Assembly (NCBI GenBank): GCA_905479925.1 | Contig: CAJQOL010000045.1 | Coordinates: 1 to 64,000, forward strand | Direction: 5' to 3' | DNA: 64,000 nt | Origin: an uncultured Kangiellaceae bacterium | Lineage (GTDB): Bacteria; Pseudomonadota; Gammaproteobacteria; Enterobacterales; Kangiellaceae | Part shown: positions 13,913-19,042 of the stretch, one piece after another | Layout of the letters: each line of letters begins with the position of its first letter | How positions within the stretch are numbered: position 1 is the stretch's first letter | Program-made: the position numbers and the translations under genes | Notes under the pieces: model-generated | What the model saw: the letters and a program-made list of their open reading frames with translations, nothing else | Databases searched by the model: none | What the model was told of the DNA's origin: nothing

Positions 13913-16087
13913 CTAGCTCTTTTTTATAGAAACACTTTCGTAGGCCGTTAACAGCTCACTAGCTGATAGCGGTGCGTGGAAAAAATAACCTTGGAAGTAG
14001 TCGCAATTGAGCGCCTTTAGATATTCTAACTGTCGTTGGTTTTCAATGCCCTCGGCGATGACCTCAATAGACAGCTCGTGGGCAAGTTTTATTAGCGATT
14101 CAACAATTGTTTTACTATTGCGGTTATCGGGTAATTCAATAATAAAACTACGGTCAATCTTCAGTTGGTCAACCGGTAGATTTTTTAAATAACTAAGGGA
14201 AGAGTAGCCAGTCCCAAAATCATCTAGCGAGATTGAAACACCCAATTTCCGAATAGTTTCTAACTGTTCTACGACGCTATCCATATTGTCCATAAAGGCA
14301 CTCTCAGTTACCTCAAGCTCAAGTTGACTAGGTTCTACCTTATAGGCTTTAAGGTTTTTGATAATGTCATCGGCTAGGTTCGAATACTTGAACTGCTTTG
14401 GCGAAACATTAACGCTAATTTTTACGTTGATATTTTTACTGGCAAGTCGTTGCAGTTCCTCGCAGGCGGTCTCTATTACCCAACGGCCAATATCAATAAT
14501 AAGCCCAGAATCTTCAGCAATAGAAATAAAAGAAGCCGGGGCAATCAAGCCGTGCTCGGGGTGATTCCAGCGAATCAGCGCTTCCGCTCGGTGTATACTT
14601 TTTTGGCCAATACATATTTGAGGTTGATACAATAATTCAAATTCTCTTTTTTCAATGGCGTTTTTTAGTCCCTGTTCAATATGAAGTTTTGAAACCGTGT
14701 CGCGGATGTCTCCGGGTCCAAATAATTGAAATTGATTTCTTCCCATTTCCTTAGCGTGATACATAGCAAAATCAGCGCTTTTAACAATTTGACGGGCATT
14801 GGCGCCGTCCCTAGGATATACCGCAATACCGACACTTGCTGAAACGTTGATAGTCAGTTCATTAAACGAAACATCACGATAAATGCCTTCAATGATCCTC
14901 TGTGCCATATCAGGTAATGCGTTGCTTTTGCCATAGTCGGTAGCAACTACTGCAAATTCATCGGCACCTAGGTGAGCAACATAATCTTGCGTTTTTAAGC
15001 AGCGTTTTAAGCGTGAGGCAACGGTGTTCAAAACAAAATCTGCTTGCTCGGGGCCTAATCCATCATTTATTTGTTTAAAGTGATCTAAGTCGACGTAAAA
15101 TAGCGCGAGGTTACCGCCTTGTAATTTTTTTTGGTCAATTTGTGTTGACAGATAACTCCAAAAATTTCTACGGTTTGGCAGTCGCGTTGTTGGATCTATT
15201 TGGGTTAAACGCTCAACTTCCTCCAAGGATATACGACTTTCACTGATGTCATTGGCAATACAGATATAATGAATAATCTTTTCGTTTTGGTCCTCGTTAA
15301 CGATAGGCGCAATCATTAAACGTATCCACTTCTTAGTCTCACCATTATCAGAAGTTTCAAACTCACCTTCCCAGTGTTTACCAACAGCGAGAACGCGATG
15401 AATTTCGGGGTAGATTCGTTCAGCTTCCTTAACCCATTTTTCTAGTAACGATTGTCGCTCTAGTTCGCCTTCGTCGTTAAGAGAATAAATATCAACTAAG
15501 GCTCGGTTGTATAGCTCGACAGCACCATCCTGCCTGCAAATTAATACCGCTGATGATTCTTCTTGGATATTATCGCTTAGCTCGGTTAAAGAGACTTGGG
15601 GCTGGCAAAAGGACTCTAGTTGTTGTTGCAGTTTTCGCTGGTGAAGTTGTACAACGTTTTCTAGTTGTTCATTCTGAAGTGCTAGATTTCGGGCGGTTTG
15701 AAAAACCTTGTGTCTGACATCAAAGTTGGTTGTTTCATTAGTAAACAATAGAACGGGGGTTTGTAATGCGTTTATCGCGACAGCTTCAATGTAAAATTCA
15801 ACGTCGTTCGCTGTAATTTCAGTCCATAGGCCCGAATGGAGTTGGCCATCGGTACTCTGACTCCAGAGCTTTTCAGCGTCATATAAAAAATTCTCAATAA
15901 AGGGAAATGCATTCGCTAAGTGAAAGTTTGTGGGTACGCCTGAGCGAGCCATTCGTTTGTTGTATAAACCGGAAAACCAATCCGGCAGCTCGTTTATTGG
16001 GGTGAAATCATCGTCTTTGTTCCACTGAAACGCAGCAATCTCAAGTTGCTTAAGAATTACGCTGAGCATTGATGTTTCAAACGTCAT
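13913..16087 (-). CDS. PAS-GGDEF-EAL protein, probable c-di-GMP phosphodiesterase
   Basis: 724 residues, cytoplasmic. An N-terminal domain of unknown type (1-130) is followed by a coiled coil (about 130-160), a PAS domain (about 170-290), GGDEF (about 295-455) and EAL (about 470-715). The GGDEF signature is GADEF (374-378), so cyclase activity is doubtful. The EAL domain keeps E502-A503-L504, DDFGTGYSS and EGIEN motifs needed for c-di-GMP hydrolysis. The ATG at 16087 follows AGAGGAA. It lies 69 bases after the GTPase gene and is likely the last gene of that operon, suggesting that the GTPase/OmpA module feeds into c-di-GMP signalling. Confidence 0.9.
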   Translation of the reverse strand: MTFETSMLSVILKQLEIAAFQWNKDDDFTPINELPDWFSGLYNKRMARSGVPTNFHLANAFPFIENFLYDAEKLWSQSTDGQLHSGLWTEITANDVEFYIEAVAINALQTPVLLFTNETTNFDVRHKVFQTARNLALQNEQLENVVQLHQRKLQQQLESFCQPQVSLTELSDNIQEESSAVLICRQDGAVELYNRALVDIYSLNDEGELERQSLLEKWVKEAERIYPEIHRVLAVGKHWEGEFETSDNGETKKWIRLMIAPIVNEDQNEKIIHYICIANDISESRISLEEVERLTQIDPTTRLPNRRNFWSYLSTQIDQKKLQGGNLALFYVDLDHFKQINDGLGPEQADFVLNTVASRLKRCLKTQDYVAHLGADEFAVVATDYGKSNALPDMAQRIIEGIYRDVSFNELTINVSASVGIAVYPRDGANARQIVKSADFAMYHAKEMGRNQFQLFGPGDIRDTVSKLHIEQGLKNAIEKREFELLYQPQICIGQKSIHRAEALIRWNHPEHGLIAPASFISIAEDSGLIIDIGRWVIETACEELQRLASKNINVKISVNVSPKQFKYSNLADDIIKNLKAYKVEPSQLELEVTESAFMDNMDSVVEQLETIRKLGVSISLDDFGTGYSSLSYLKNLPVDQLKIDRSFIIELPDNRNSKTIVESLIKLAHELSIEVIAEGIENQRQLEYLKALNCDYFQGYFFHAPLSASELLTAYESVSIKKS

Positions 16088-16156
16088 CGGTTTCCTCTTG
16101 CAGTAACTTAAGTATTAGCGAAGTTCTGCGATACCTGTAAACATAGCAAATGTTAG

Positions 16157-16654
16157 TTAGTCTTCAACCATTAAATGAGTTATGCGTTCAAAAGCACGTT
16201 CCACATTTTGATCGGTCTTAGCACTAGTAATAAAGGTGTTATTTTCCGAAATAGCTAAACTTTTTGTATCATCTTCGGAAAACTGCCAGCTTTCACGAAG
16301 ATCAGATTTATTTATTAATAAAAGAGTCGGGATTTTTCCGAGGTTATCGTCAACCAGTTGTTTTACTTGTTTGGCGGTTTCCAGTGATTTTGAGCGGGTT
16401 CCATCGATCACAAGTAAAATTCCACTTGCACCTCTTAAGTATGATGGTTTTAGATCGGTAAATATATCAACGCCTTCAATATCCCAAATCATCAGTTGAA
16501 CATCTTTATTTTGATAAGTTAGGTTTTTTTTATCAATTTTTACGCCAATGGTAGTGTGGTATTTCTCACTAAATAGACTTTCGACGTAACGTTTTACTAA
16601 GCTGGTTTTTCCAACTGCAAAAGCACCTACCATACAAATCTTTTTATTCATCAT
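16157..16654 (-). CDS. Rab/Ras-like small GTPase
   Basis: About 165 residues with all five G motifs: G1 GAFAVGKTS (residues 10-18), switch I TTIG, G3 WDIEG, G4 NKSD and G5 TSAK. The catalytic Gln of Ras after the G3 glycine is replaced by Val (WDIEGVD), so a partner protein may be needed for hydrolysis. There is no C-terminal prenylation motif. The ATG at 16654 (or 16651) lies inside the end of the OmpA-type reading frame (stop 16644-16646), so translation is coupled. Longer starts would run through the OmpA domain. The closest functional analogy is the MglA/Rup type of bacterial GTPase. Confidence 0.87.
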   Translation of the reverse strand: MMNKKICMVGAFAVGKTSLVKRYVESLFSEKYHTTIGVKIDKKNLTYQNKDVQLMIWDIEGVDIFTDLKPSYLRGASGILLVIDGTRSKSLETAKQVKQLVDDNLGKIPTLLLINKSDLRESWQFSEDDTKSLAISENNTFITSAKTDQNVERAFERITHLMVED

Positions 16655-16967
16655 TGGTAACAGCCTTTTGTTCGGAATAAAGGACCTCGATTCGTGCTCT
16701 GCGTTGCCGCTCACTTGGAACGGACTCCAGGTCATTAGTACCGTATCCCCAGCTTACCGTTAGATTTTGATCGATGTTATTGGCTCGTAATATGTCTTCA
16801 ATCAGTTTTGCACGTTCTGAACTTAGTGACTGGTTACTTTGCCGAGTACCGTTAGAATCTGCATAGCCTGCGACGCTTATTTGTATTATCGATAATTGTG
16901 CTGTTTGTTGTAGGGCGAGAATTCGTTTAATCTTGAGTACCGCCTGAGTTAAATCGTTCTTACTATT
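16644..16967 (-). pseudogene. OmpA-like C-terminal domain cut off by an in-frame TAA
   Basis: Directly after the TAA at 16968-16970 the same frame stays open for 107 codons to a TAA at 16644-16646. It encodes the body of an OmpA peptidoglycan-binding domain: ISVAGYADSNGTRQSNQSLS, SERAKLIEDIL and a C-terminal ERQRRARIEVLY, all hallmarks of the family. The first strand (FYYFESAKSQLE) lies before the stop, so the domain is split. The segment has no start codon or ribosome binding site of its own. It ends inside the GTPase gene start, which indicates that this was the original end of the upstream protein. Confidence 0.85.
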
Positions 16968-18437
16968 TTATTCAAGTTGGCTCTTAGCGCTTTCAAAATA
17001 ATAGAACTGATTATTAATACTACTGGTCAATTGAATAAATTCTTGGCGAGCGAGCTGCCGCGCGCTTGGGGGCGATGTTAGTACTAGGGAAGGGTGCTTT
17101 GTTACTTTAAAATAATTCATAACAAGAATATCGTCTGTCATCGCTTTAAAGTTATCGACGCTTATTTTGTCGCTAACGAGTAATTCATACTCACCTTGCA
17201 AACGATTAACTGTAAGACTGGCTTGGTATTTCTGTGACAAGTAACTAATAAATAATTCCGGGTCGTCAAGCATCGCTATTTTTTCAGTAATAACAACTTG
17301 TATATTATTGGTTGCAAAAGACTCTATCAGTTGGTTGGTTGATATAGCGAGGGGAGAGCGTAATACGGTAATGGACAAACGCTTGTCCTGGAGATTATGC
17401 TCAATCACTTGGAATCCGCTTTGTTGATTAATATTTTGAACAACGGATTGTTGAGTCTGTTTATCCTGCCAGTCATTGTACAGGTAATAGGAAGCTGTCG
17501 TGGTTATAGCTAGCACTAAAATAATGGCTAACCATGGTTTGCTTGGTTGTTGTTCTTTTTCTTTTCTGACAAGAGAATCAATAAGCCAATCATGACAAGG
17601 CAGAAATGGATCGCTATCGCCATTAAACTTAATTAGTTCGCTATTAAACTGTAGATGGATTTTCTCCAGTAATTCTGAAATTTGAATATTGATGCTGCTC
17701 GGTATTGTACCTCTCACCGCAAACGCCACTATCGCATGGGGACCGGTTTCAATTAATAAACTGAGATCACCAAACTTAATAACATTAAGGCTATTGTTCT
17801 CTTGGTTAAATGAATCGTTAGCAAAGTCTGAGATAGCGGTTAACATAGAGGATACTAAGTCTGGATCTTGGTATTCAATTCCTTGAATGCAGGCGGACTG
17901 AAGTAGCAGGCCTGTTTCTCTATGGATTAAAAAAACTTGCTCTACTTGAAATTGAATTGATTGCAGCAGAGCGTATTGACCATAAGGAATTCCTAGTCGC
18001 CACGCTTTAAAGCGCCACACCAAAGCCCTTGCCGTTAAGCTCTGTTGCAAAAGATGATTTAATGACTGCATTAGGTCAGAAAGAGCACTGGATACTGCTT
18101 TTCTTACCGCCGGTCCAATGATTGGAAAAATAACATTTGTAATGCGTTCTGGATGAGCTTTTATAGAGGTATCTATTGCAGACTCAATAACTGGAGACAT
18201 TTGCTGTGCAAGAGAATCATCTTGTTTGTTTCGTTGCTGAAATGCTTCGCTTAGAACCTCTGCGACGCGGTCTATATTTTCCTTTGAGAGTCGCTCTTTT
18301 ATGACATTTTCGTAGTCATCACCAAGTAACAAGGAGCGTAATTTCGTTAGCTCCTCGGAACCGGATGAGTTACTTGGAGGGAGAGAGGAATTTTTATCCT
18401 CTTTGGGCGCCACTTTATCGGGCTTTTCCTCTAACAT
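16968..18437 (-). CDS. OmpA-type inner-membrane protein, frame interrupted before the OmpA domain
   Basis: 489 residues up to the in-frame TAA; about 597 if the stop were read through. Residues 1-300 are cytoplasmic and start with a disordered Pro/Ser/Lys region, then the helix EELTKLRSLLLGDD (about 29-41) and a domain at about 165-265 (VEQVFLIHRETGLLLQS) that reminds me of Roadblock/LC7 folds (weak). One transmembrane helix spans about 301-321. Residues 330-465 are periplasmic and BON-like in pattern, followed by the first strand of the OmpA domain. The ATG lies two bases after the stop of the coiled-coil gene, so the pair is co-translated. A Roadblock-like domain beside a GTPase would parallel MglB-MglA. 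Confidence 0.75.
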   Translation of the reverse strand: MLEEKPDKVAPKEDKNSSLPPSNSSGSEELTKLRSLLLGDDYENVIKERLSKENIDRVAEVLSEAFQQRNKQDDSLAQQMSPVIESAIDTSIKAHPERITNVIFPIIGPAVRKAVSSALSDLMQSLNHLLQQSLTARALVWRFKAWRLGIPYGQYALLQSIQFQVEQVFLIHRETGLLLQSACIQGIEYQDPDLVSSMLTAISDFANDSFNQENNSLNVIKFGDLSLLIETGPHAIVAFAVRGTIPSSINIQISELLEKIHLQFNSELIKFNGDSDPFLPCHDWLIDSLVRKEKEQQPSKPWLAIILVLAITTTASYYLYNDWQDKQTQQSVVQNINQQSGFQVIEHNLQDKRLSITVLRSPLAISTNQLIESFATNNIQVVITEKIAMLDDPELFISYLSQKYQASLTVNRLQGEYELLVSDKISVDNFKAMTDDILVMNYFKVTKHPSLVLTSPPSARQLARQEFIQLTSSINNQFYYFESAKSQLE

Positions 18438-18439
18438 GA

Positions 18440-19042
18440 TTAAGCTTGAGTTTCAGTCAGGTTATTAGCCATGCTTTCTAGCAAGTTAGCAAGGGTCTTG
18501 CGGTCTGCTTTGTTATTACCTAACTCTTTTGATGCGGCTTCAATTTTTCGAGTCAGGTTTTTCACTTCAGTTGTCATTGATTGATTAATACTATCGACAG
18601 ACTCAGTGAGGGATTGGTGCGCATCAGTAAAGCTTTTGTCGGTATTTTCCTGAAAGCTAGTGAGCTCGCTTGTTAGCGCTTCTAGTTTTTCTTCTAAGAT
18701 AGATTCCTGACTAACATGTTCTAAATGAGATGACTCTAGGTTATCCGCAATCGATTGGCTAGCGCTCTCTAGTGCGCTATTTATATTTTGCTGGTTATTT
18801 TTAATCAGTTGTTCAAGTTGATCCAGTCGTTGGTTCATTTGGGTGTTTTGCTGTGCGATCGCATTTTCCAGTCGTTCGACTTGCTGACCAAACAGTAAGT
18901 CCCGTATGGCCGTCAGTTGCTGCTGTGAATCTGCAGCGGTTTGAACATTAGCTTTATCTTTAGTGGCGGGCGTCGCCGCTTTCTTGCTGGTTGGTTTTGT
19001 TGATTTGCTTTTTGCGCCCGTGGAATTCTTTGTTGAAGCCAT
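18440..19042 (-). CDS. Coiled-coil protein, first gene of the GTPase/OmpA operon
   Basis: 200 residues, soluble. Residues 1-35 are Lys/Ala/Thr-rich and disordered. From about 40 the protein is one long coiled coil rich in Gln, Leu, Glu and Ser. A short motif LTAIRDLLFGQQVERLENAI (about 43-62) resembles EELTKLRSLLLGDD in the next protein, which may be a shared docking helix. A good ribosome binding site (AAAGGGA) precedes the ATG. The stop lies two bases before the next start. Similar layouts occur in proteins pairing with OmpA-type membrane proteins, but no named family is recognised. Confidence 0.7.
   Translation of the reverse strand: MASTKNSTGAKSKSTKPTSKKAATPATKDKANVQTAADSQQQLTAIRDLLFGQQVERLENAIAQQNTQMNQRLDQLEQLIKNNQQNINSALESASQSIADNLESSHLEHVSQESILEEKLEALTSELTSFQENTDKSFTDAHQSLTESVDSINQSMTTEVKNLTRKIEAASKELGNNKADRKTLANLLESMANNLTETQA

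What the first reader, a model, noticed from the sequence alone, without database searches (positions are those of the whole stretch)
13913..19042. Operon linking a Rab-like GTPase, an OmpA-type trans-envelope protein, a coiled coil and an EAL phosphodiesterase
Tight spacing (2-bp gaps, coupled starts) ties four proteins with no named system: a cytoplasmic coiled coil, a single-pass protein with a cytoplasmic Roadblock-like region and a periplasmic peptidoglycan-binding end, a small GTPase lacking the catalytic Gln, and a c-di-GMP hydrolase. This could be a polarity or envelope-sensing switch like MglA-MglB, reporting through c-di-GMP.
Basis: partly seen in the sequence, partly recalled or inferred. 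Interest (0 to 1): 0.72.

Follow-up and report, generated by a model that had tools for sequence, protein, structure and literature searches.

The report
Rab-like GTPase operon controlling c-di-GMP
This is a bacterial member of a described but never tested family of signalling operons, in which a relative of the Rab switch proteins of complex cells sits between a protein anchored to the cell wall and an enzyme that destroys the messenger c-di-GMP; structure prediction adds that the anchored protein carries a domain of the same fold as partners of Rab proteins in complex cells.

Summary
The four genes are there, and this is a known kind of operon: 'Group 1 Rup', defined by Wuichet & Sogaard-Andersen (PMC4316618) as coiled coil, unknown domain-TM-OmpA, Rab-like GTPase without the G3 glutamine, and an output enzyme with an invariant N-terminal Gln. 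All features were met, except that OmpA is interrupted. Co-occurrence is strong: of 369 class genomes 27 have the GTPase, 27 the OmpA-type protein, 26 both. New here, by prediction: the 'unknown' cytoplasmic domain folds as a longin/Roadblock-like GTPase platform (best Z 13.7, longins ahead of MglB), and the enzyme's N-terminal domain is PAS-like with the Gln on its exit helix. Outputs are wider than reported: HD-GYP, class III cyclase, PP2C. The two operons without a GTPase gene carry Lys instead of that Gln. Corrections: an in-frame TAA (16968-16970) means the peptidoglycan-binding end is not made as sequenced; six family relatives are intact. The GTPase starts at 16651/16654, not 16735. The last enzyme is GGDEF-EAL with intact EAL motifs and a degenerate GGDEF. 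Most likely mechanism (inferred): an envelope-anchored longin platform loads or positions the GTPase, which grips the PAS exit helix and sets phosphodiesterase activity.

The parts
18440..19042 (-). coiled-coil protein, 200 aa, first gene; no TM segment
   Evidence: homologues at the same place in most loci; hydropathy
16968..18437 (-). OmpA-anchored platform protein as sequenced (489 aa): helical region (res 25-160), longin/Roadblock-like domain (res ~160-294), TM (res 301-321), start of OmpA domain; ends at in-frame TAA
16968..16970 (-). in-frame TAA inside the OmpA domain, absent from all six family relatives that have the gene
16644..16967 (-). rest of the OmpA domain, open in the same frame for 107 codons, then TAA 16644-16646
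   Evidence: (Pfam OmpA 43.9 bits, one stop inside)
16157..16654 (-). Group 1 Rup (Rab-like) small GTPase; start ATG 16654 or 16651; G3 DIEGV without Gln
13913..16087 (-). output enzyme 724 aa: PAS-like domain A (res 1-118), exit helix with Gln130 (res 119-161), PAS (179-283), GGDEF (degenerate GADEF, no RxxD), EAL (motifs intact)

Best explanation
This is a Group 1 Rup system. The OmpA-type protein is anchored in the inner membrane and, when full length, grips peptidoglycan; its cytoplasmic longin/Roadblock-like domain, probably dimeric like other members of the superfamily, is the docking platform (GEF or scaffold) for the Rab-like GTPase. The coiled-coil protein probably joins or spaces the complex. 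GTP-bound GTPase contacts the PAS-like domain and the start of the signalling helix of the output enzyme, where the invariant Gln sits, either as effector contact or as the missing catalytic Gln supplied in trans, and this sets the activity of the EAL phosphodiesterase. Shown: genes, motifs, co-occurrence, Gln conservation. Predicted by AlphaFold: both domain folds. Inferred: all contacts, the direction of the signal, the sensed stimulus. In the sequenced strain the TAA would leave the platform in the membrane but uncoupled from peptidoglycan.
For: Same four-gene order in six family relatives and nearly all of 27 class genomes with the GTPase; 26 of 27 shared with the OmpA-type protein, p about 1e-37; domain A found in 12 genomes, all among the 27. 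Longin/Roadblock fold: the listed VIA matches are longins, Roadblocks, MglB, TRAPP, Mon1-Ccz1, adaptor subunits and Fuzzy, Z 10.4-13.7, many of them GTPase partners. Gln conserved: domain A 86 of 88, domain B 50 of 51. The two exceptions in A are the two operons without an adjacent GTPase. GTPase positions that track the partner domain cluster at residues 25-74, the switch face: 12 of the top 15, p=5e-5. EAL motifs intact. Published description of the system.
Against: The 2014 description states that no Rup protein had been characterised, and I found no later test of binding, GTP hydrolysis or output. The longin/Roadblock call rests on prediction; a profile search against PDB sequences did not find it. 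The Gln-loss pair is probably one evolutionary event, and both genomes have another GTPase elsewhere. Two GTPases (L108, L145) do have the G3 Gln while their partners keep theirs, which weakens the 'Gln in trans' version. The switch-face signal is not corrected for phylogeny. The OmpA end is interrupted here.
Confidence: 0.6

Rival explanations
1. The GTPase acts through the longin/Roadblock-like domain alone (an MglA-MglB-like GAP/GEF pair); the Gln helix of the output enzyme is a conserved coiled-coil or dimer position of the PAS signalling helix with no role in GTP hydrolysis.
For: The Gln lies in a long helix leaving a PAS-like fold, followed by a conserved Leu seven residues on in both domain types, as in signalling helices; MglB alone acts on MglA (literature).
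Against: Both exceptions to the Gln are operons without a GTPase gene; domain A is found only next to this GTPase in the class sample.
Confidence: 0.25
2. In this organism the system is decaying: the TAA is the first step of loss, and the operon no longer senses the envelope.
For: In-frame TAA absent from all six relatives with the gene; most genomes of the family and order sample lack the OmpA-type protein altogether (54 of 61 without a match).
Against: The sequence after the TAA is as conserved as, or more than, the periplasmic stretch before it (38-52% against 22-36% identity), with no further stop; the other three genes are intact. So the stop is recent, or an assembly or sequencing error.
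Confidence: 0.12

Closest known systems
Group 1 Rup GTPase systems (Wuichet & Sogaard-Andersen, PMC4316618)
   Same: all four components, gene neighbourhood, absent G3 Gln, N-terminal invariant Gln of the output protein
   Different: OmpA domain interrupted here; folds of the 'unknown' domains now predicted; outputs found more widely (HD-GYP, class III cyclase, PP2C, stand-alone domain B gene in cyanobacteria)
MglA-MglB polarity module (Myxococcus, Thermus)
   Same: small GTPase with a partner of the longin/Roadblock superfamily
   Different: GTPase is Rab-like, not MglA; partner is membrane- and wall-anchored and aligns better with longins; no Pfam Roadblock hit in this genome
Eukaryotic and Asgard Rab-longin platforms (TRAPP, Mon1-Ccz1, Fuzzy-Inturned with Rab23)
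   Same: Rab-type GTPase with a longin-fold partner; best PDB sequence match of the GTPase is Rab23
   Different: bacterial, in an operon, output is a second-messenger enzyme; binding untested
Actinobacterial conservons (Cvn)
   Same: operon of small GTPase, Roadblock protein and signalling protein
   Different: MglA-family GTPase, no OmpA anchor, no c-di-GMP output

Membership tests
Group 1 Rup system | Rab/Ras-like small GTPase of under 240 aa without the G3 glutamine | tested here: met
   Pfam Ras 1.9e-34; Val at the G3 Gln position; Gln there in 2 of 102 homologues
Group 1 Rup system | adjacent gene for a cytoplasmic coiled-coil protein | tested here: met
   18440-19042, homologues at the same place in relatives; no TM
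Group 1 Rup system | adjacent conserved unknown domain, often with TM helix and C-terminal OmpA domain | tested here: inconclusive
   Conserved domain and TM met; OmpA domain encoded but interrupted by TAA in this genome, intact in relatives
Group 1 Rup system | output protein (GGDEF/EAL or kinase) with invariant N-terminal Gln | tested here: met
   Gln130; 86 of 88 domain A rows
Group 1 Rup system | placement in the Group 1 clade of the published GTPase tree | not tested
   no tree with the published sequences was built
MglA-MglB module | MglB Roadblock protein encoded with the GTPase | tested here: not met
   No PF03259 match in the whole genome; the neighbouring domain shares the superfamily fold only
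longin/Roadblock superfamily (cytoplasmic domain) | beta-beta-alpha-beta-beta-beta-alpha core fold | tested here: met
   AF2 residues 161-269, block pLDDT 72-97; Z 10.4-13.7; by prediction only
longin domain proper | extra C-terminal helix in place of the N-terminal helix of Roadblock | tested here: inconclusive
   longins align through residue 292-295 including helix 281-287, Roadblocks stop near 270; a helix also precedes strand 1 in the model
active EAL phosphodiesterase | EAL and further catalytic motifs | tested here: met
   EALIRW, NVSPKQF, LEVTESAF, DDFGTGYSSL, KIDRSFI, AEGIE, YFQGYFF found; activity itself not testable here

The most novel reading that the evidence does not exclude
Hundreds of bacteria in several phyla carry, in one operon, a Rab-like GTPase and a longin-fold platform anchored to the cell wall, so the Rab-longin pairing of eukaryotic membrane traffic has a bacterial counterpart that instead controls second messengers and kinases, with a PAS-like domain that completes the GTPase active site by a Gln in trans.
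Probability: 0.35. Interest if true: 0.8.

Novelty: new member of a known kind. Interest (0 to 1): 0.5.

Why it matters
Group 1 Rup proteins are the bacterial GTPases placed closest to Rab/Ran/Ras/Rho (PMC4316618), yet none had been characterised when they were described. Giving the 'unknown' domain a fold known to bind GTPases, and tying the invariant Gln to the presence of the GTPase, turns a gene-neighbourhood description into testable contacts, and bears on where Rab-longin pairs came from.

Tried and rejected
A single-protein scan of genome contigs with the OmpA-type protein found nothing; the alignment scan did. Pfam and NCBIfam do not recognise the cytoplasmic domain; a profile against PDB sequences gave only weak hits to the helical region. 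Promoter-like sites were no more than in shuffles (16 against 14.6). 'Programmed readthrough of the TAA' was considered and set aside: no relative has a stop there, and UAA is a poor readthrough codon (own knowledge). Literature searches found no later paper on Rup systems or on a longin domain in them; most subscription papers are not held. Matches of domain A to PAS folds have middling Z (7-8.4), so 'PAS-like' is stated, not PAS membership. The helical region of the platform protein (res 25-160) was not searched as a separate model. Complex prediction was not on offer.

Full report
What is there. On the minus strand, 19042 down to 13913, lie a coiled-coil protein, an OmpA-type membrane protein, a small GTPase and a PAS-GGDEF-EAL enzyme. 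The coiled coil and the OmpA-type frame are 2 bp apart. The GTPase ORF listed from 16735 is too long: alignment of homologues and the junction sequence ACCAATGATGAATAA put its start at 16654 or 16651, overlapping the stop of the full OmpA frame. The enzyme follows after 69 bp. The EAL catalytic motifs are intact; the cyclase motif is GADEF and the inhibitory RxxD site reads KTQD, so phosphodiesterase is the likely activity.

The interrupted OmpA domain. The open frame stops at TAA 16968-16970, early in the OmpA domain; the frame then stays open for 107 codons to TAA 16644-16646, and Pfam OmpA spans the stop with 43.9 bits. All six relatives in the family that have the gene are open throughout. 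The part after the stop is 38-52% identical to the relatives, the periplasmic part before it 22-36%, so the stop is recent or an error of sequencing or assembly. As sequenced, the protein keeps its cytoplasmic part and TM segment but not its peptidoglycan-binding end.

It is a known kind. Wuichet and Sogaard-Andersen (PMC4316618) described 'Group 1 Rup' GTPases, which lack the G3 Gln and are encoded with a coiled-coil protein, a protein with an unknown domain often followed by a TM helix and an OmpA domain, and an output protein (diguanylate cyclase/phosphodiesterase or histidine kinase) whose N-terminal region has an invariant Gln. They proposed a signalling complex and noted that no Rup protein had been characterised. 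The window's operon meets this description.

Co-occurrence. Six family relatives keep all four genes in order. Of 369 genomes of the class, 27 have the GTPase (E<=1e-20) and 27 the OmpA-type protein strongly; 26 have both (expected 2; p about 1e-37). Three further genomes have a divergent platform; the two of these that were looked at have a divergent GTPase beside it. Domain A of the output protein occurs in 12 genomes, all among the 27. A scan of 84,980 species gave at least 548 loci; the best 80 include Gammaproteobacteria, Cyanobacteria, Acidobacteria, Gemmatimonadota, Planctomycetota and others, and 71 of these 80 hold platform, GTPase and a type A or B domain together, 70 of them with the coiled coil as well.

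Outputs. Two N-terminal domain types exist, A (about 137 aa) and B (about 123 aa). They are joined to GGDEF-EAL, HD-GYP, histidine kinase with or without receiver, and in two cases to a class III cyclase domain. Many cyanobacteria have a separate domain B gene followed by A-kinase. Two loci from Acidobacteria/Gemmatimonadota have a PP2C-type phosphatase after the GTPase instead. HD-GYP, cyclase and PP2C outputs are not mentioned in the passages of PMC4316618 read here.

Folds. AlphaFold2 on 92 sequences (pLDDT 81) gives a helical region, then strand-strand-helix-strand-strand-strand-helix at residues 161-269. Foldseek and VIA-align match residues 160-295 to longins (Vamp7, Sec22b, Ykt6; Z 13.1-13.7), Fuzzy of CPLANE, TRAPP and Mon1-Ccz1 subunits, adaptor subunits, Roadblocks and MglB (Z about 10.8-10.9). 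Many of these are GTPase regulators or GTPase-bound. Longins align further, through the last helix, which is the feature that separates longin from Roadblock (PMC10933270); I hold that distinction as inconclusive. Domain A (pLDDT 91) is PAS-like (Z 7-8.4) with a long exit helix, residues 119-161, that contains Gln130.

The conserved Gln. It is present in 86 of 88 domain A rows and 50 of 51 domain B rows. The two A exceptions, both Lys, are L096 and L098, the only operons of these sets with platform and domain A but no GTPase gene next to them. Their genomes have a GTPase elsewhere beside a B-kinase, and the two are similar in sequence, so this is probably one event. GTPase positions that differ between A-partnered and other members lie mostly at residues 25-74, around the switches: 12 of 15, p=5e-5; phylogeny is not removed. 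Against a simple 'Gln in trans', GTPases L108 and L145 have the G3 Gln.

Mechanism. The best-supported reading is a membrane-anchored longin-fold platform that holds or loads the GTPase, and a GTPase that acts on the PAS-like domain and exit helix of the output enzyme. Envelope strain as the input is a guess from the OmpA anchor. Which partner is GEF or GAP is open.

Verdict.

Noticed in passing
L176 and L177: Divergent platform-GTPase-kinase triads with G3 motif DTDGN and no recognisable coiled-coil gene.
   Followed up: partly
L146:8117-9085 and L100:7757-9124: PP2C-type phosphatase directly after the Rup GTPase, no A or B domain.
   Followed up: partly
L178: Coiled coil and 959-aa platform protein without an adjacent GTPase.
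   Followed up: no
L161:6623-7201: Solitary Rup-like GTPase in a cyanobacterium, no platform gene in the stretch looked at.
   Followed up: no
window 16157-16651, GTPase residues 86 and 11: Arg of the DGTR motif is invariant in 102 of 102 Group 1 GTPases, role unknown; Phe or Ser sits at what aligns by eye with Ras Gly12.
   Followed up: no
genus g5 of the family (G009, G013, G016 and others): The small-genome genus of the family (2.3-2.9 Mb) lacks the OmpA-type protein in every genome searched.
   Followed up: no
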